Origin: Cheiracanthium punctorium
Lineage: Eukaryota; Arthropoda; Arachnida; Araneae; Cheiracanthiidae
Direction of reading: 5' to 3'
NCBI GenBank assembly: GCA_038373885.1
Contig: JAWZYV010012343.1
Span: 62,001-126,000, forward strand
Length of the DNA: 64,000 nucleotides
In this document: positions 10,151 through 52,899 of the stretch, one piece after another
Position numbering within the stretch: the stretch's first letter is position 1
Layout: the number at the start of each line of letters is the position of its first letter
Made by a program: the position numbers and the translations under genes
The notes under the pieces: generated by a model
The model's input: only the letters and a program-made list of their open reading frames with translations
Database searches by the model: none
What the model was told of the DNA's origin: nothing

Positions 10151-11940
10151 AGCGTTATGTAGTACCGTTTTAAGTATACAAAGGTACGCTTTCAATCAGG
10201 AGCGTAGACAAATGGGTGGGTATCGGGATATATGCCCCTAACAAAATTTTCCCAATAGTAAGCATGAGCTTTCAGATTTTTACATTCTGAAGGAATTTCA
10301 TTAGTTTCTCGAATTTTGTTGTCTATCTCCGCCGTAGCATTCAATTTAACTGAAGAAAAATCGACATTTTCTCCTTAAATTCTAAGAGATACATTTGCAC
10401 TAAAGAAACAAACAAACAACTAGAAATGTTGAACTCTAGAGAGAATTTAAAGAAAATGAAAATAGAAACTGTTTGCATATTGGTTTGCTACGTTTTATTT
10501 TTACATATACGTGCACATATGCATGGGTTGCATGAGCGTAAATCAGACTTAATAAATTAAAATTTAAGCTGTTGTAATGACAGATTTTAACAATATCTAT
10601 CACTGACCTTTCAAAATGAGACTTAACAGAAAATACAGAGATAAAAAGCACGCCATTAAAGTGCACTTAAGAGCTCTGTACTATAAAGTAGAACTTTATA
10701 GAGCAGACTGCGTAACTCAGAAGAATTTACAACTATCCGTTAATTATTTCATTGAAAAGAAAGTTGTAATGGTAAAGAATTGAAAGTGTAGAACGTATAA
10801 ATTTAATATATAACTTTTTTGAATATACATAAAACTCTGCAGTCTCCACACGTTTTCGTATTATTGCTTCTGAATTTACATTAGAAGGGGGCATTTAAAA
10901 GATATATGCGCTCCAGTATATTACTTTAAGACCCACTACAATAAACAATATTTTACGAATTCTTATTCCGTAAAGTTGGCATTTTATAGGGATATAGATC
11001 TTGGCTATGGGATGATAGGAAAGTTTGGGGTTGTCTGTTTTGTTCAAAATTGAATCAATCCAGTCAACAAGAAAAATAATGCCGCAGTGATTTTAAAACA
11101 TCCCAACAGAATCTGCTTCATGGAACAGGGTAATTCTATAACTTATCCCTGCTACAAATAACCCTTTTCAATAGGCTACGTAGCAGTATAATATTGAGAA
11201 GCAATCAACACTTGTGTACTTAAATAGATAAATAAGCCGACCAGCTTTAAATTTCACACTAATGAAAAATAAAGAATCCATCTTACTTCGCCAAAATTCA
11301 CTTACCGCGGTGGAATTTTGAAAAGGAATAACCGCGCGAATAACCGCGCTAAACAAGGGATGGCTGTACTTATTTACACAAAGCGTGTGGATTACATTAA
11401 TAATCAATTTATCAGCAATATATAATAATAAATTTTTAAGCAAAAGTTCTCCTTTTTTCTAAACTTCGATCCCCAAGTTTTCTACATTTTTGTCACATTC
11501 ATAGCATATTTAGAGCCTCCAAACTGGAACAGGAATACATTTATAAATTTATTCGAAAATTGGGCATTTATGTTACTTATTATATTTTCAACTTTTCTGT
11601 GCTAGCTGGGTAAAAATCCGGAAACTAAAAATATTTCTGAAAAGTGTAACTTAAAAATTTTTTGGCTGCTTTGGCATGATCAGAACCCCTAAAGTAGAAC
11701 CGGAAGATATTTATTGACTATTCTAAAATTTCGAATTTACGGTTTCTTGTATATTCTTCCAACTTTTCCGCTCTGGCGGGAATCGGAGAGTCAACAATTC
11801 ATCGAAATGTGAAAATTTCCGTAGCTCTCGGCTAATTTTGCATACTTAGACCTCAAAATGGAAACAGTAGGTATTTATTGATTCATCTGAAATTTTGTGA
11901 GTAGGTGTCTTAGAAAACTTTTTCTCGCTGGCGGGAAAAG
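10150..11940. other. AT-rich intergenic DNA
   Basis: It holds a decayed hAT-like end near 10200 and otherwise nothing I can name. Open frames at 10436-10666 and 11168-11443 look like chance. Confidence 0.5.
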
Positions 11941-11941
11941 A

Positions 11942-12690
11942 AATTTGGCAAAAATATTTGTGACACTCTACTCTGATAAACAGCAAGACCATCAAAAGTA
12001 AATGCTGAAAAGGAATGTTGTACAAATAACCAATCCATCTTAGCAACCAAAGAAGGAAATAAGCTAAAAATTAAATTCGTATCTATACATTTTTGAAGAG
12101 CCTCTTATTTTCCGATTCCTCAACCACTCCTACATTAAGCAATGATGTTTTTGATCTAAACAATCTGACAGAAATTTGGCAAAAATGTTTGTTACACTCT
12201 ACTCTGATAAACAGCAAGGCCATCAAAAGAAAATACTGAGAAGGAATGTTCTACAAATAACCAATCCATCTTACTTAGCAACCAAAGAAGGAAATAAGCT
12301 AAAAATTACATTCGTATCTATACACTTTTGAGGAGCCTTTTATTTTTACATTCGTCAACCACTCCTGCATTGAGCAATAATGTTTTTGATCTAAAATTTC
12401 TAGAGAAGTCATATCCCATTTAAAATACCTCGTTGCAATGTATTTTATCTCTTTAAGCTAAGTTGAATGAACGAGGAATTTAAATTTTAATACATTTTTC
12501 CCCATTCCCTAAAGTATCATCATGGTTCATGACTCTTCAAAGCAAGATTGCTCTTACAGACGCTTGACGTTCGGTAATAACTTTTTCACATTCAGTTGAT
12601 GAACTCGCAGTGCTTTAAAGAAAGGGCGGTTTTTCTTTTTCTTTTAAAAAGAAAACGAGTGTCTATCCAGACAATGATTTAAATGTTAAT
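11942..12690 (+). repeat. Tandem 231-bp repeat with an inverted copy at 23.4 kb
   Basis: Two direct units (11942-12172 and 12173-about 12400) share CACTCTACTCTGATAAACAGC and AACCAATCCATCTTA. The second unit and the following ~290 bp (to about 12690) recur inverted at 23420-23930. Confidence 0.75.
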
Positions 12691-13244
12691 TTTAAAATGT
12701 CGCGCGAATGGAGACGATGCGTCAATTTCCTTGGAATTTTTTTTTCTTTTTTACCCCTTATTCTATCTTCTCAAAACTGCTCAAGAATGAAATTATTTTT
12801 ACATTTATAGTATTTTGAAGTTCGCTGTCTTTCTAGTCCACGTCTTAGCATAAAAATGACACTGCGCTTGGATGACTTTCCAGTGGTAATCATTACGCAA
12901 CGAGAAAACACAGCTTGGTGCAAAAGGTAATAAGCATCAAAAACACAACATATACGAGCACCATTACAAAAACTTCGAACAAATCGGCTATTTGAATGAT
13001 GGACGGTTTACAAAATTGCTAAACTTTTGTTTCCTATAATTGTGTGGCAAAAAAAATCTGATAGATGGACTTTGGAAAGAGGTTCCGAAATGCGTAATTA
13101 GCATGACTACTGTGCCAAGTATTTGGCAATGTGATTTTTTAACAGGATGGATCACCTTCACATGGATCAATGCCTGTGCGTTATTCTATCAATATTTCAC
13201 AGACGGTTGGATAGTAGGGCTAGGCCAAAAATGGATATTTTAGG

Positions 13245-13985
13245 TGTGGTTCATTCCACATCAAATCATCCAAAACTTTTCGGAAATGACACCCTCTGTC
13301 ACGGATTTTGAGGAAATTTGGTACATACGTACAATTTTTTTATGCTGATTACAAATGTATATACTTTTGTACATACTTTAAAAAGGTAATTATATATGGA
13401 TAAATGATCTTTAAGAAAATAGAACAATGCACCGATAATAAGGATGCGTGTACTTGTTCAGAATTTTATTTTTGAAAACTTTATCTATGAAATACCCATA
13501 AAACTTTTTCAATCAGATATTACAGCATACTCTTAACTACTTGTGTATAAAATTTGGTGAAAATTCTAAATGGAGCACTTCACGAAATCAGCTGTTGAAG
13601 TTATTCACTCTGTAAACCAAAAAAAAATGAGAAATAAACGGACTTTACAGTTACTTTAGAAAAGTTGTACAATATTGACCCTGCTTGGGTAAAATATGTG
13701 TATTTTTCTGATCAAAACAACACAAATTTGAAGTGTGTAGGACAAATTTTAAGAAAATTATGCCTATTTATGTGTGTATATAAGTGTCATTCAAGATGGC
13801 ATCCAACAGGGCATCACAAATGAAATTTGAAAGCTCGTAACGTTTGAATCCCTCAATTAATCTCAAAAAAATTGATATATTTGTAATCAGCATCAAAAGA
13901 TGTGCATATGTACCAAATTTCATCAAAATCTGTGACGGATGATGCCATAGCTTCGTTGATCGACATGGAATGACTCGTAAGCGAT
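13245..13985. repeat. Foldback repeat with ~120-bp inverted arms
   Basis: The left arm carries TTCATTCCACATCAAATCA, GTCACGGATTTTGAGGAAAT, TTGGTACATA and ATGCTGATTACAAATGTAT. The right arm has the same blocks inverted (13860-13980). The interior is AT-rich and non-coding. No clear duplication was seen. Confidence 0.7.
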
Positions 13986-14099
13986 TTCTAAAAGAAAAAA
14001 AAAAAAAAAAAAAGTTTTACTTGCCATCCTTAATTTGGGAAAAATAATATAATAAAAAAAAATGAAGAAAATCTGAAACCTTTTCACATTTTAAATACG

Positions 14100-15240
14100 C
14101 ACCAAGGTGCTATATATTAAAAGCGTATCATAATTTATGCGTCGTCCCTATTTTCTTCCTTATTCCATAAGGTTGGAAAGTGCATCATTGTTCATGAGTG
14201 GGCCGTATTTTTCTTGCTTGTTTCATAAAACTCATCTTTGGAATCGAAATCTATCTTAAAATCGCCTACTAAAACTATTTTACAATCTTCGCCAAGTATA
14301 TTACAACTATACTTCACCGTTTTAAATAGTGTTTCGAATGTGCATCCTAATCCATCAGTGTGCCGTGTTTGTCTTTCTTGGATTGATTTCTACTTTAACG
14401 TCCCAACTCTCGCCAAGGTGGCGATCATTAAAAATATAGAGTAACCATGACAATTTTTTGTATTTGTGTGGCAATCGTCATTTAGAATTAAAATTTCGAT
14501 TTGGAACAACCTGTAACTACAGCATTCCGTTACATTTTTATTTATGTTGGGTTGACAATGAATGTAGTTTTAATGATTAAGTGTATTCAAATTCCTTAAC
14601 TAGGGCGTTTATCACTAATTTGTTCACTTTAGTTTTCATGTAGTTGTTTAGGGAGCGTTGAAACTTGTGCATAACTCCTAGAGACCCATGACTTCTAAGC
14701 TCTCCAAAGGGCGGGGAATATTTAGGTTGGCGAAAGTAGGGGCGTTAAAATAGGAATCGCCTCTTTCTTGAACCATAAAGCACATCTTTGGGATCCAAAT
14801 CTATCTTAACCTACGCCTATTCATACTGTTTTAAAATCTACACCAGGCATATTTGAACTATAGGCATATTCCAAATATATCTCGTAGAACTTTTAAATAC
14901 TGTTTGGAATGAGCATCCTTATCCATGAGTGTATCGTGTTTTCCTTCTTTGTTCCTTAAAACACTTCTTCGGAATAGAAATCTACATTAAAATCGCCTAC
15001 CAAAACTGTTCAACAATTTTCGCCAGGCATAGTCAAACTACACTTCACCTTTATAAATACCATTTGGAAAGTGTATCATAATCTATGATGTGTACCGTAT
15101 TTGTTTTCACTATTCTATAAAACACTTCTTCGGAATTAAAATCTATATTTAATCGTCTACTAAAACTATTTTACAGTATTCGCCAGGCGTTTTCTAACTA
15201 TACTCAAAATATATTTATAATAAATTGTCGCATTTTGGCA
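14100..15240 (+). repeat. Degenerate tandem repeat, ~175-bp units
   Basis: About five diverged units carry a TTTGGAA-GTGCATCATAATCCATG-like block, an AAAACACTTCTTCGGAAT block and a TTCGCCAGGCAT block. A related start (CTATATATTAAAAGCG) and shorter units occur at 530-760. Confidence 0.65.
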
Positions 15241-15566
15241 CCCAGTTGAGCGATCCTTTATCAAAAATTGCAAACCTTGTGCGACTTTCAACATTTTATT
15301 AACGCCCCCCCCCCTCCACGTTATCTGGCAAATACATTTCAAAAGTGACTCGACGCGAAAATTGTACCAAAATCGTGCCTACACAAAAAGCAAGGTTGAA
15401 ATTAATAGCACTCTGGTGCTAAAAATAAATATTTATACCTTTAGGTCGCCCATGAGACCCTCAAAATTTGAAAAAAAAGGCTAAAAAAAATGATAAAATT
15501 AAAAATATGTATGTATTGAAATGCAAATATTAATTTTTTCTAGTACCATTCACGTCCTTCATTTTA

Positions 15567-15675
15567 CCCCAGTAGCACAATTAGTCCAAAAAACGTTTAA
15601 AACACGTTTTTTAACGTCAAGAAACGTGTTTCCAACGTAATTTAAACGTTTTTTGAACTAGTTGTGCTACTAGGG
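15567..15675. mobile_element. Palindromic MITE with TA duplication, inserted in foldback arm
   Basis: A 109-bp element is almost entirely palindromic: one end reads CCCCAGTAGCACAATTAGT and the other, inverted, CCCTAGTAGCACAACTAGT, both leading into CAAAAAACGTTTAAA. TA flanks both sides (15565-15566, 15676-15677). The opposite arm of the host foldback element lacks the insertion and reads straight through as CATTTTAATACTC, giving an empty site that proves the boundaries and the TA duplication. Confidence 0.9.
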
Positions 15676-16471
15676 TAATACTCTTTTCATATATCTTTGA
15701 GAATATTTATGTTCTTTTGCAGTTTTTAGGTCTCGCATGCGCCGTAAATTTTTGGAAAATTAACCAATATTCGACTTTTTTAGCTTTTTTTAGATGTTGC
15801 AGAGTTATATTTTTTTACGTAGTCCAGTTTCACACTTTACTGAATAAATGCGCACTCTGTAGCTTTTTTCTTGCTATGCAGTTTTAATTTATTGCATTAA
15901 CAACCCAGAACTCACCAAAAGCAGGTGGCTACACTTCAAGTTCCACCCTGCAATTCCCATCCACCAAGCCATGAAAAACAATTATTTACATATTGACAAT
16001 ATATTCACATTTAAAATTACTACATTATTTTAAACAAGGTTCTACCTTTGGATTCAGGTTTGAAGTTGGAATCGTGACTCAGTGTCGGCATTAATGATCG
16101 CGAGTATAAAGTTCTTCTCATGAATCCATCAGTTTTGTCTTCCCCGAGTTACCTTCTCTGTAGATTGCCTGACCAGTTTCGCAATCCTTTCAACAGCTTG
16201 AGTGTGACACAGGAATTTTAGGAATTCAAACTTTGGCAATGGGTTGGTTTCTAGAAATGGCGGAATATCCTAGTTTGTCACATTTTCTACCACTGGAGGA
16301 GTAAAAAGTGAACAGCGTTGACCAGTCGAGAACCCAGATTCAGGATCCTGGAGAAATACATCTGGGACAAGAGACACCTGAAAGAGGTACTGGTTTCAGA
16401 ATACCTGGAAAAATTTATCAATATTGGGCGGGGGGAGGGGGGGGTAATGTTGACGTGAGACAATTCGTCGA

Positions 16472-17163
16472 GATTGGCTGTGATGGTACAGCTGTAAATA
16501 TGGACCAGGGATGGCGCAATTCTAAAGATTGAAATGAAACTTCACTTGCCTGCTCCATTTCAATGAGGTTTCTTTTAGGCATATTTTTCAAGATTTAGAG
16601 GTCTAACTATAGTCCCTGCTAAGTTTTGGGGATTTATTGGAAAAGCCTTAACTAGCTGTGAAAAATTAACTGTTTTTAACTCTGAAAGAATTCAGTCGGA
16701 AGAAATCGAAGTTTCAGAGACTGACTTAAGTAACGACCAAAAGTGTTTATTGAATATTGTCAGACCAATACAGAAAGGAAAATGTGACCCTTCGCTGTCA
16801 GAAATACAGGACCTTACATCATTCACGTTGGTTAATGTGCGCTAACCGAAATCTGCGATATTTCCCAAACTGAACTTACCAATGATATGAAGATATTCGT
16901 AAATTATATCTTAAAAGTTATGCTCCATTATGGTTCGATAAAAAAAGAGACATTCTGTAAAACATGGACATGTAGTTTGTATAACTTTCAAAAAGTGTAC
17001 GAGACGTTTTCTTTATAATCTCCTAAAAATCGCGGATCCAGAGACTCAAAGACACGTCTACTTTGCTAACCCTGAGAGCTTGTTAGCCATGGCAGTAGGC
17101 GACAGGCCACAAAGAATGGGTAGAACCTTGTTTAAAAGGTTTTTAAAGTCATACAGTAATTGA
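16472..17163 (+). pseudogene. Broken transposon protein inside the foldback element
   Basis: Several adjacent plus-strand frames form one decayed protein. From left to right they read EIGCDGTAVN (near 16475), LHFNEVSFRHIFQDLEV (near 16551), an 88-codon open stretch at 16579-16842 with FIGKALTSCEKLTVFN and LSNDQKCLLNIV, then LTNDMKIFVNYILKV (about 16875-17019), then DPETQRHVYFANPESLLAMA (about 17000-17163). From memory, the order matches a protein seen repeatedly in arthropod assemblies with cores like IGCDGT, SGPIGKAL, STDQKYL, VYAPMWF and NAYFAHPENLLLAM. I do not know a formal name or activity for it. At least three frame changes and several stops make it non-functional. Its last codons run into the inner edge of the right arm, as expected if the gene filled the centre of the element. 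Confidence 0.6.
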
Positions 17164-17721
17164 AAATATATTGTCAATATGCACATAACTGTTTTAAATG
17201 GCTTGGTGGATGGAAATTGCAGGGTGAAACTCGAAGTGTAGCCACCTTCTTAGTTCTGGGTTGATAATGCAATAAATCCCAATTGCATAGCAAGCAAAAA
17301 GCTGTACAGTGCACATTAATCAGAAAAGCGTAAAAATTAAACTATAAAGCAGAAATACTGCAACATCTAATAAAAGCTAAAAAAGTCGAATTTTGGTTAA
17401 TTTTACAAAACTGTACCGGCTTTTACGCGACCTAAAAAGTGCAGAAGAATATAAATATTTTTAAAGATACATGAAAAGAGTATTAAAATGAGGCACGTGA
17501 ATGGCATTCGAACAAAAATGTATAATATTTGTTTTTTAGGATTTTTTTTTTTTATATATCACATTTCTTTTCAAACTTGGAAGTTCATGCGCGACCTAAA
17601 GATATAAATATTTATTTTTTTAATTATTTTACCGAAATTAAGTATGTCAAAGTACAACTTTTTTTCCCTATCAGAAATCGCTTATCTAAAATATTCATAT
17701 TTCGGCCTACCCTAATGGATG

Positions 17722-17978
17722 AATAGAGGTGGTCCAATTCAGTGGCCTCCCCGATCGCCGGATTGAACCTCCTTGATTTCTTTTTCAAGTGGGGCTACGT
17801 TCCAGATGTCGTTCACAGGACTCCATGTCCTAATGTACAGGAACTCAAGCAGAGAATCATGGCCGCTATTCACATTATAACACCTCGGATGTTTTGAAAT
17901 ACTTAGAATGCAATCGAATATCGTTTAGACGTTGTACGAGACATCAAAAGATCTCATATTGAAAGCTATTTATTCTAT
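17722..17978 (+). pseudogene. IS630/Tc1/mariner-superfamily transposase C-terminal remnant
   Basis: The plus strand encodes NRGGPIQWPPRSPD (17722-17763). After a one-base frame change it continues LNLLDFFFKWGYVPDVVHR and NVQELKQRIMAAIHIITPRMF to a stop at 17895-17897, then NAIEYRLDVVRDIKRSHIE further on. The PPRSPDLNLLDFF block, the TP-x-ELKQRI block and the closing RLDVV-HIE pattern are those of the catalytic end of many arthropod mariner-like transposases. The upstream catalytic residues are absent. It begins about 100 bp beyond the right arm of the foldback element, so the latter may have landed in an older transposon. Confidence 0.7.
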
Positions 17979-17999
17979 TATGTATGGATGCAATTAGTT

Positions 18000-19147
18000 A
18001 GCAATTACATTTTAATGCTACTGTGTTCTAAATGCTTCTATGTAATTTCATAAAGTGTCCAATAATTTGCTGGCATCTGTAATGTACTACAATTTTAAAT
18101 TTCATTGCATGCGCTTGAAGCCAAATAAAGTTATTTAAAAATAGCATTTTAAAAATATTGTACTTAAAATTTACTATTCATTTAAAATTACCTAACGCGA
18201 AAAAGAATTTTCACACTTCCAAGCAAGTCTTAAAAAACTTTCAACTCGCAATGTATTGTTTTATAACATTTGACTTAAAGTACCGACATCAGAAACAGCG
18301 TAGCATGAGAAAAACACCCAATTTCACTAAATATGTTATTTAGTTTTATTAACATAAAATCTAAATGCACCCACGAGTTCTTGGAGAAGGTATTCCTCGA
18401 TAAAATAAATCTTCTCCAAAGGGCTTCCTTCCAAACTGCCTCGATTTTTTATTCCCAAACTGACATTTAAACGAGAAAGGGGGGAAAATTAGGTCACGGT
18501 TGAAAGGCAGTGTTAAATGAATATTGGAGATGAATCTGCTGCCAAAACACTCTTTCCCCAAAAGATGTTATTTTAAAAGCTTTAGATACTTAGAAAACTT
18601 AAAGCTAGACTCTTTTCAACATCTTTAAGTATTAACAACTTTTAATATATTCAAAGCAAATTCGCATAACCATAAATAAATATACCAGAGCCATGTTAGT
18701 TTACGCGCCGAAAAGTAAAAGTTTCCACGGAGTTGCCCAGAATTAGGATTCATGTGTTTCAAAACCCCATTTTAATTATTTCTCCGAACTGGGCGAGTTT
18801 TATACTGTTAAAAATTATCCGTATTAGCGAAATAACTTGTTATTTGTGTTAAGAGATGATTGGGTTCATCTCGAGAGAGTGGGATGTGTTAACATATTTC
18901 TGGTTTTTCCCCAGAGAGGTTAGCTTGTAAAACTCCGATTGATTCTATTTTAAAAGTAATCACTACAATAAATCGAGTCAACTCTACGAAACTGAAGTTT
19001 GAAAACATTATAGAGTTTAGATAGTAAATTTTAAGAAACTTTACACAAATAGATCGGTTATTGGTTTGTAAGTTTAACGCCATGATGCAGTCCGTTCAAT
19101 TAGAATTAAACTAGCTTCAGATATCATTTAATTATTTCAAAAACTAA
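18000..19147. other. AT-rich intergenic DNA
   Basis: No element end, gene or regulatory signal was recognised. Confidence 0.45.
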
Positions 19148-19155
19148 GTATGTTG

Positions 19156-19356
19156 CAGTGGCGGATTATTGCAAGTTTGTCGGGGGGGGCTGTTAGTTTG
19201 TCGGGGGAGCGGTTAGTTTGTCGGTGGGGGCGGTTAGTTAGAAGATTGACATATACATTCATTTTATGGAAGTAAAATAGGATCTTTTACATTAATTTCT
19301 TTCTTCTCGGCGGAGGAGGGCGGTCGCCCCCTCCGCCCCCCTTTTATCCGCCCTTG
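19156..19356. mobile_element. hAT-like miniature element (CAGTGGCGGAT ends)
   Basis: The 201-bp element reads CAGTGGCGGAT at one end and ATCCGCCCTTG at the other. Its flanks are GTATGTTG and GTGTGTTG, an 8-bp duplication with one mismatch. The left part holds three copies of a GTTAGTTTGTCGG unit. Confidence 0.8.
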
Positions 19357-19559
19357 GTGTGTTGTTTGAAGACATTTATATTATTAATATCTAAGTAATG
19401 AGAAAATGTAAACATAATGCAGTATATTAAAACTGATCTATATAATTACAAGAAAGATAAATCATGTCAAACGCATCCATTAGAAAACACTTTCCAGCCA
19501 ACAACATCTTTGTGCCAAATCTGGCGATGCATTCTATTTGGCAAGATTTTAGTTTAGTG

Positions 19560-19770
19560 GTTAAGATAAAGCAATAGAAGGGCTATCTATCTAACTGGGG
19601 ATTCCTTAGACACAGGATCGTTTTAACTATTTCTGACGTATATTCACGTTACACCTATAGAAAATCGACCTTAACTCCAGCACGTTAGAGTGACCGTCAG
19701 GGATAGTCCGAAAGCTAGGGCCTTCACACTTTGGAGAGATTTTAGAGATAATCTTATAAAAAGCTGTATA
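19560..19770 (-). repeat. Decayed SINE family A copy
   Basis: Fragments such as CGTATATTCACGTTACACC, CTCCAGCACGTTAGAGTGAC and GGGCCTTCACACTT follow the family A order on the inverted strand but with many substitutions. Confidence 0.5.
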
Positions 19771-20254
19771 TCACTATTAATTTAATTTTGCGCGACCCTG
19801 AATTTTTTTTTTAATTTATTTCCATCTTTTAACTGGAAAAGAAGCATTTATAATCGTTTATATACTTACTGCATCGCGCTTGAAAAGGATGAATATTTGT
19901 ACACTGCCAGAGACCGTAACGTATTGAAATTATTTTGAGTGCTCCTGTTAGAGAACTAAAAGGCTACAGGCAGTATTTTCGATCGAGATCGTAATTTTGT
20001 GATCTTTAATAATATATATAAATTTTGTTTTTCCCAGCCAAATATATCTTCACTTTACAAATGCACTTTAAAGAATGACTGCCCATAGAGGGTTATGTGT
20101 TGGAAATTCTTTTGAGTGTCCCCTGTAAAAGAAAAATCCTTCATACAGCTTTTTCAAGTGAGTACATACTACTGTACAGTGTACATAGGAATAACATACT
20201 TAAATTTCGTAGTTGTCGATGGAACAGACGGACGGACTTTGTTGCTGAAATCTT

Positions 20255-51858: not shown

Positions 51859-52899
51859 TCAGTACCCAGAGTAGCCGCCGTTGTTGGAGATCACAGCTGC
51901 CACACGCCTCGGCATTGATTCAAAGAGACTTTGAATGTGTTCTTGGGGTACAGCAGACCAAGCAGCTTCCACACGTTGCCAAAGTTGATCTGGTGTGACA
52001 GCTGGGGATGAACTCTGGGTCAGTCGTTGAGCAACCATGGACCACATGTTTTCTATCGGCGAAAGATCCGGAGAGCGCGCCGGCCAGGGAAGCAATTCAA
52101 TCTGGTGATTGACGAAGAACCCTTGGACAATGCGTGCCACGTGTGGCCGTGCATTATCCTGCTGAAATATGGCTGTTGGCAAGCCCTGAAGGTAAGAAAG
52201 GACAACTGGCTCCAACACCTCGGAGATGTAGCGCTGGCTGGTTAAAGTACCGGCAATGCGTACTAGAGGAGTGCGAGAGAGATATCCGATACCGCCCCAT
52301 ACCATAATACCCGGTGCAGGACCAGTGTGACGGTGCATAATGCAGCTGTTCAGCATCCTCTCTCCACGGTGTCTCCAGACTCGAACCCGACCGTCGTGGT
52401 GTTGCATACAGAAGCGTGACTCGTCAGTAAAGAGAATTTCATTCCATTCTGTCGTCCACATCCTTCTTTCATCGCACCATTGGCGGCGGAGACGTCTGTG
52501 GTTCCGCGTCAGAGGTAGACAAAGCAACGGACGTCTTGCGGACAGACCATTCTGCTGTAAACGACGTCGAATGGTACGCGCAGACACTGGATGATGCGTT
52601 ACAGACTGAATCTGCTGTGATATGGTTAGTGATGTGACTGAGCGGTCCGTCACTGCCGTGCGTACAATCTGCCTGTCATCACGTGACGTGGTGCACTGAG
52701 GTCGATGCGGTCGATCACGTCTGTCCGTCGTACCCTCCTGCACCCAACGATCACATATCCGCATCACAGTTGTTTGGTTTCGTCCAATACGACGACCGAT
52801 TTCCCTGAAAGATAACCCACAATCTCGGTATGCCACTATCCTTCCTCTGTCAAACTCGGATACTTGATCAAAAGATGATCGTTGTTTCCTACGAGGCAT
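51859..52899 (-). CDS. Tc1-family transposase (DD34E), intact
   Basis: This 346-residue protein is an intact cut-and-paste transposase that would bind the element's inverted repeats and move it into TA targets. Residues about 14-52 form the first helix-turn-helix (GLSFREIGRRIGRNQTTVMR). A basic RDRPHRP stretch near 62 matches the GRPR-like linker of the family, and a second helix-turn-helix spans about 75-120. The catalytic triad is visible as D159 (FTDESRF), D248 (QQDNARPH) and E283 (SPDLSPIENMW). The last two are separated by exactly 34 residues, the DD34E spacing of Tc1. Length is normal for the family. The Met at 52899 is the first in frame, 232 bp inside the terminal repeat. There is no stop, frameshift or missing catalytic residue, so activity is possible but unproven. 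It is the only convincing intact gene in the window. Confidence 0.96.
   Translation of the reverse strand: MPRRKQRSSFDQVSEFDRGRIVAYRDCGLSFREIGRRIGRNQTTVMRICDRWVQEGTTDRRDRPHRPQCTTSRDDRQIVRTAVTDRSVTSLTISQQIQSVTHHPVSARTIRRRLQQNGLSARRPLLCLPLTRNHRRLRRQWCDERRMWTTEWNEILFTDESRFCMQHHDGRVRVWRHRGERMLNSCIMHRHTGPAPGIMVWGGIGYLSRTPLVRIAGTLTSQRYISEVLEPVVLSYLQGLPTAIFQQDNARPHVARIVQGFFVNHQIELLPWPARSPDLSPIENMWSMVAQRLTQSSSPAVTPDQLWQRVEAAWSAVPQEHIQSLFESMPRRVAAVISNNGGYSGY

What the first reader, a model, noticed from the sequence alone, without database searches (positions are those of the whole stretch)
15421..17620. Long-armed foldback transposon carrying a decayed, unnamed transposon protein
Arms of about 500 bp enclose about 1.07 kb in which consecutive frames spell EIGCDGT, SFRHIFQDL, FIGKALTSCEK, LSNDQKCLL and YFANPESLLAMA. 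I recall these blocks together in many unannotated arthropod proteins. Finding them inside exact long inverted repeats ties that protein to a particular element structure, possibly an undescribed or poorly described DNA transposon class.
Basis: partly seen in the sequence, partly recalled or inferred. Interest (0 to 1): 0.78.

Follow-up and report, generated by a model that had tools for sequence, protein, structure and literature searches.

The report
Foldback relative of unannotated hAT-like transposons
This is the wreck of a jumping gene that had lost its own starting half and carried two copies of its tail end facing outwards; it belongs to a transposon family, seen in insects and in this genome, that standard protein libraries do not recognise, and it suggests that two tail ends alone were enough to let it spread.

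Summary
The inverted repeat and the protein blocks are real, but the arms are not exact (78% identical) and the element is larger: 13215-17714, not 15421-17620. Three later insertions interrupt its left arm.

The window copy is a non-autonomous foldback derivative. Its left arm is an inverted second copy of the element's right end, C-terminal codons included, joined head-to-head to the middle of the gene; residues 1-345 are absent. The same junction recurs in 16 of 20 fetched relatives and five further places. Outer ends of the better copies carry 8-bp duplications, so the right-end/right-end form itself moved. Arms are about equally distant within and between copies, implying a burst from a master with near-identical arms, then decay.

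The system works like hAT; sequence-level membership was not shown.

The parts
13207..13214 (.). left target-site duplication TTGGATAG (5 of 8 letters equal to the right one)
13215..13245 (+). left terminus, TAGGGCTAGGCCAAAAATGGATATTTTAGG..
   Evidence: nhmmer with termini of relatives, E 0.006, model positions 3-31; first base set by eye to the T of TAGGG
13246..13977 (.). later insertion 1, 732 bp, with its own 83-column inverted piece (82%)
13978..14061 (+). left arm resumed (TAAGCGATTTCT.. to ..AATAATATAATAAAA)
   Evidence: (I7)
14062..15420 (.). later insertion 2, 1359 bp of degenerate 160-180 bp direct repeats; a partial second copy in L025 begins at the same base
15421..15566 (+). left arm resumed
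15567..15675 (.). later insertion 3, 109-bp MITE (CCCCAGTAGCACAA..TTGTGCTACTAGGG) between TA dinucleotides; the right arm shows the empty site
15676..16049 (-). left arm: inverted copy of the element's right-end non-coding part
16050..16317 (-). inverted copy of the transposase C-terminal codons (P0002 residues about 665-753), with a stop and a frameshift
   Evidence: tblastn, P0002 E 3.6e-15
16318..16337 (.). founder junction: C-terminal codons head-to-head with residues from about 346
   Evidence: shared with relatives
16338..17118 (+). decayed middle of the transposase gene (P0002 residues about 352-621, with the second D, CxxH and RW motifs), several frameshifts and stops
17119..17714 (+). 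right arm and right terminus (..GGCCTACCCTA); in this copy the C-terminal codons after about residue 621 are deleted at 17118/17119
   Evidence: 27 of the 49 other matches end at query 628-650, that is 17097-17119 (counted)
17715..17722 (.). right target-site duplication ATGGATGA

Best explanation
13215-17714 is a dead copy of a non-autonomous foldback derivative of a hAT-like cut-and-paste transposon. Shown: full-length relatives in this genome are 3.4-3.9 kb, begin TAGGGTGG or nearly so, duplicate 8 bp (mostly nTnnnnAn), and where stop-free encode one RNase-H-fold (by prediction) DDE transposase of 773-779 residues. Shown: in the derivative the left end and residues 1-345 have been replaced by an inverted copy of the right end including about 100 C-terminal codons. 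Shown: one junction is shared by many dispersed copies, and the outer ends of the better preserved ones carry 8-bp duplications, so the right-end/right-end form was itself mobile. Inferred: transposase supplied in trans by full-length relatives synapsed two right ends, excised the element and inserted it. Inferred: the founder arose during repair of an excision gap, when the left broken end invaded the right end through the shared terminal repeat, copied arm and C-terminal codons, and was joined to the strand copied from the other side. Inferred from the arm distances: amplification while both arms were nearly identical, then neutral decay. The window copy lost its right C-terminal codons and received three insertions.
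Against: The window's own duplication is weak (5 of 8), and L017, L024 and L027 show only 2-4 of 8. In the test the first base of some termini (window, L010, L012; L033 among full-length ones) was set by eye one base from the nhmmer estimate, to the T of TAGGG. 5 of 20 relatives show no opposed C-terminal piece by tblastn (L013, L014, L016, L027, L028); L016 and L027 still cross the junction, L013, L014 and L028 do not, and L015 crosses it only narrowly. No full-length element of exactly this subfamily was found, so how different its native left end was from the right end is not known. Full-length relatives can have long inverted ends themselves (L029, L031, L033), so long arms alone do not prove a right-end copy; the C-terminal codons in the left arm do. 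No transposition was measured.
Confidence: 0.88

Rival explanations
1. The foldback is a native autonomous architecture: the full element carries C-terminal codons in both arms, and the copies seen have only lost the N-terminal half.
For: Three of five full-length relatives have long inverted ends, two of them with tandem repeats, so ends can be symmetric.
Against: In the six full-length loci examined the coding match runs once, N to C, and no inverted C-terminal piece shows at the left (part of L030's left flank is masked). The derivative joins residue about 651 directly to residue about 346 in many copies, as a single rearrangement would.
Confidence: 0.07
2. Two separate elements inserted next to each other in opposite orientation and were trimmed; the composite never moved as one unit.
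For: Would also give head-to-head coding pieces at one site.
Against: The same junction occurs at many places on different contigs, and 8-bp duplications flank the outer ends of the better copies. One local accident cannot give this; segmental duplication would carry the flanks along.
Confidence: 0.03
3. The protein family is a separate superfamily beside hAT and P elements, which shares only the ancient fold and converged on 8-bp staggered cuts.
For: No Pfam family reached its cut-off; the best of a few unrelated weak hits was E 0.03. Profile comparison with 42 canonical hAT proteins gives only E 0.027-0.043 and probability 1-2%. The PDB sequence search gave only chance hits, E 1.5 or worse. 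The N-terminus is Cys-rich without a BED hit.
Against: The only aligned stretch puts the second D and CxxH in register. Motif order D-D-N-CxxH-RW-E is the same in both alignments. Hermes stands well above other folds. Terminus and target motif are of the hAT type.
Confidence: 0.3

Closest known systems
hAT superfamily (Hermes, Ac, hobo; canonical hATs of the same genome, L035-L044)
   Same: 8-bp duplication, mostly with T2 and A7; most termini fit YARNG; predicted RNase H fold with helical insertion; D, D, CxxH, RW, E in the same order.
   Different: No Pfam hAT model matched; no BED domain hit; Cys-rich N-terminal part; sequence similarity only marginal.
P superfamily, especially Galileo (long, plastic inverted ends; recalled, start of the abstract of PMC4168063 seen in listings only)
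   Same: Foldback forms, variable arm length (recalled); P element transposase is third in Foldseek (E 1.3e-3).
   Different: No Tnp_P_element match; Hermes aligns better; termini differ (P termini recalled).
Tetris, a foldback element of Drosophila virilis (PMC4079207, abstract and outline seen)
   Same: Non-autonomous foldback with long arms that seeded tandem repeats; one arm piece here has also grown a tandem array (C1834).
   Different: A different element; the arms here contain transposase codons that show which end was copied.
Right-end/right-end Hermes complex (PMC10368747, abstract and passages seen)
   Same: Two right ends can be held in parallel by one transposase assembly.
   Different: A laboratory complex; here a natural element with two right ends multiplied.

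Membership tests
hAT superfamily | 8-bp target-site duplication | tested here: met
   13 foldback elements: flank pairs stand out at 8 bp (0 of 2000 permutations), not at 4-7 or 9-11 bp; 12 bp gave 25 of 2000. Full-length L029, L031, L032, L034 8 of 8, L033 7 of 8
hAT superfamily | target motif nTnnnnAn (recalled) | tested here: met
   T2 in 30 of 36, A7 in 33 of 36 octamers of 18 elements
hAT superfamily | terminus YARNG (recalled) | tested here: met
   22 of 34 foldback termini and 10 of 11 full-length termini, read with one-base shifts by eye and counted; the rest deviate, as decayed copies may
hAT superfamily | RNase H fold with insertion between second D and E | tested here: met
hAT superfamily | D, D, CxxH, RW, E residues (recalled set) | tested here: met
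   D323, D397, R521, W522, E707 invariant and C426, H429 at 90% or more in 54 sequences; same order in 42 hATs
hAT superfamily | Dimer_Tnp_hAT (PF05699) or another hAT Pfam domain | tested here: not met
   no such match at E up to 10 in 7 full proteins and 3 window pieces; PF05699 itself gives 150 matches from 150 scored candidates in this genome
hAT superfamily | detectable sequence homology to hAT transposases | tested here: inconclusive
   hhalign E 0.027 and 0.043, probability 1-2%, second D and CxxH in register
hAT superfamily | N-terminal BED zinc finger | tested here: inconclusive
   no Pfam BED match; invariant C134, C136, C159, C161 suggest a metal site
P superfamily (P, Galileo) | Tnp_P_element or THAP match | tested here: not met
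   no such match at E up to 10
Foldback element (structural class) | long inverted arms around a short middle, moved as a unit | tested here: met
   inverted alignments of 824-935 columns in L017, L018, L019 and L021, outer 8-bp duplications
Zisupton, Novosib, other 8-bp-duplication superfamilies | transposase homology | not tested
   no reference sequences at hand

The most novel reading that the evidence does not exclude
The family is an undescribed transposase superfamily beside hAT, widespread in arthropods and invisible to current profile libraries. Unlike asymmetric hAT elements such as Hermes, it can synapse and move two identical right ends, so that a right-end/right-end foldback became a successful parasite of its parent.
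Probability: 0.28. Interest if true: 0.72.

Novelty: new variant of a known kind. Interest (0 to 1): 0.55.

Why it matters
A protein family deposited as 'uncharacterized' or 'hypothetical', and once as 'Defensin' (P0019), is shown to be a likely DDE transposase with defined ends and stop-free, nearly identical copies. Masking that relies on hAT profiles would miss it. The dispersed right-end/right-end copies are a natural experiment on whether a hAT-like transposase needs two different ends, a question raised by the asymmetric Hermes complexes.

Tried and rejected
Rejected: element ends at 15421/17619 (they are inner breaks in the arm homology; relatives continue to TAGGG). Rejected: exact arms. 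Rejected: one continuous gene between the arms. Led nowhere: viral contigs with P0001 and A1 and genome contigs with A1 gave no relatives. The PDB sequence search gave only chance hits. TRF found no array in 13800-17800, although direct repeats are there. Paper searches on the motif strings CHTQAVER and CDGTAVNTG, NELPLRHL, YFDGRKD, HSRWLTTANR, CDGTNVNTG found 0 papers. The terminus strings matched 59 papers, of which I saw 20 titles and abstract starts, none on a transposon of this kind. Topic searches listed no paper that I could recognise, from titles and abstract starts, as describing the family. Repbase and Dfam were not available, so an existing consensus there is possible. P element chains are absent from the 50 VIA rows shown; this excludes nothing.

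Rows dropped: L011 (left terminus too degraded) was left out of the duplication test. L013, L014, L016, L020, L025 and L026, with one terminus found, and L028, with none, could not be tested. L030 was left out of the full-length duplication list because no left end was found. Arm distances used 11 loci and the window (12 of the 13 elements of the duplication test; L027 was left out). Alignment A1 used 54 of the listed family proteins, A2 42 of the 95 hAT hits.

Full report
OBSERVATION. The arms are 78% identical over 448 columns, not exact. Residues about 665-753 of the protein lie on the minus strand at 16317-16050, beside the left arm. They are head-to-head with residues about 352-621 on the plus strand at 16338-17118, which run into the right arm at 17119.

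ELEMENTS IN THE SAME GENOME. The window lies in a 2.53-Gb assembly. A search with P0030 listed 12,620 first-look candidates, scored 60 and reported 88 matches; the other candidates were not verified as copies. Six full-length loci were read. L032 and L034 (one 773-residue ORF, 3.65 kb) and L033 (779 residues, 3.85 kb) have complete open frames; L029, L030 and L031 are broken. Five of the six have both ends found: L029, L031, L032 and L034 have 8-bp duplications of 8/8, L033 of 7/8. The best local alignment of the two ends spans 611 bp in L029, 333 in L031 and 524 in L033. In L032 and L034 it is weak (scores 37 and 29 over about 270 bp); BLAST shows 46 columns in L032 and none in L034. A search with the L034 protein gave three stop-free full-length matches at about 100% identity (C13555, which is L034; C11976, which is L032; C6691) among 63 matches from 58 scored candidates. 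L032 and L034 sit between different duplications (GTGTACAG and TTATGTAT). So the family was recently mobile here.

THE FOLDBACK DERIVATIVE. A DNA search with 16470-17165 gave 50 matches from 40 scored of 65 candidates. In 15 of 20, tblastn shows C-terminal codons opposed to the middle part. In 16 of 20 the junction is crossed with at least 60 bp on either side. A search with the whole foldback L021:3658-6281 (203 matches, 40 scored of 262 candidates, list cut short) shows 20 places with one match crossing the junction at query 876 (from at most 840 to at least 920). These are the query copy, 13 other fetched loci, the window and 5 places not fetched (C8817, C5705, C8683:1890450, C352, C9481). 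N-terminal residues 1-340 were found in none of the 20 loci (best E 0.80) nor in window 11001-20000, but in 6 of 6 full-length loci. Both termini were placed in 13 elements including the window. Their flanks match at 8 bp (0.702 against 0.439 permuted, 0 of 2000), do not stand out at 4-7 or 9-11, and do so weakly at 12 (25 of 2000). Individual scores are 8, 8, 7, 7, 7, 6, 6, 6, 5, 5, 4, 2, 2 of 8, the window scoring 5. With the five full-length elements, the octamers show T at position 2 in 30 of 36 and A at position 7 in 33 of 36, the hAT target motif (recalled).

AGE AND TEMPO. For 12 elements, mean arm identity is 0.785 within a copy, 0.788 left to left, 0.787 right to right and 0.783 left to right between copies. 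In the tree of that call no arm is the nearest neighbour of its partner on the same copy. Two pairs of copies (L009/L015 and L017/L024) join left with left and right with right, as copies of later sub-masters would. The simplest reading is amplification from a master whose two arms were nearly identical, with at least two sub-masters, followed by independent decay without detectable arm-to-arm conversion.

THE WINDOW COPY. Left terminus 13215; insertion 13246-13977; arm 13978-14061; insertion 14062-15420, whose left edge agrees with another copy in L025; arm from 15421; MITE 15567-15675 between TA dinucleotides, with the right arm as the empty site; right terminus 17714. The right-hand C-terminal codons are deleted at about 17118: 27 of the 49 other matches end at query 628-650, that is 17097-17119.

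MECHANISM. Shown: anatomy, shared junction, outer duplications, arm distances. Inferred: trans-mobilisation by full-length relatives; synapsis of two right ends; origin by wrong-end invasion during gap repair. In Hermes, passages of PMC10368747 report a right-right complex with both termini in one dimer and parallel DNA, and an antiparallel left-left complex that cannot support transposition. A right-right element is therefore mechanically plausible for a hAT-type enzyme, though that work was on Hermes, not on this family.

CLASSIFICATION AND LIMITS. It works like a hAT element. Membership is not claimed, because the hAT Pfam test was not met and profile similarity is only marginal. Passages of PMC3985635 place P elements as the one group of the hAT-like clade without the hAT domain; whether this family is a second such group was not tested by a tree. 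Repbase and Dfam could not be consulted, so 'undescribed' is limited to Pfam, the PDB and the paper searches named in Tried and rejected.

Noticed in passing
51859-52899 (-): Open 346-residue ORF that reads like a Tc1/mariner transposase (label from reading the sequence, not from a family search).
   Followed up: no
14062-15420: Insertion of degenerate 160-180 bp direct repeats with hairpin-like pieces near its ends (GCACCAAGGTGC / GCACTCTGGTGC); reads like a Helitron-related element with internal repeats (recalled type). A partial copy lies in L025:3-476.
   Followed up: partly
13246-13977: 732-bp insertion with its own 83-column inverted piece, 82%; family not identified.
   Followed up: no
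15567-15675: 109-bp MITE with 14-bp ends CCCCAGTAGCACAA and a TA duplication.
   Followed up: partly
G000:C1834:602751-605414: Seven listed about 121-bp units from the foldback arm (L021 query 1873-1996), between longer arm pieces; several are head-to-tail (list cut short): perhaps a small satellite born from an arm, as the abstract on Tetris reports for another element.
   Followed up: no
G000, 13 places such as C1:1021978-1024017 and C7239:606332-608371: Copies 94-95% identical to the L034 protein over residues 1-697, all with a 685-residue open frame (13 rows): apparently a second truncated derivative that spread.
   Followed up: no
19183-19243: Three G-rich 20-bp tandem units.
   Followed up: no
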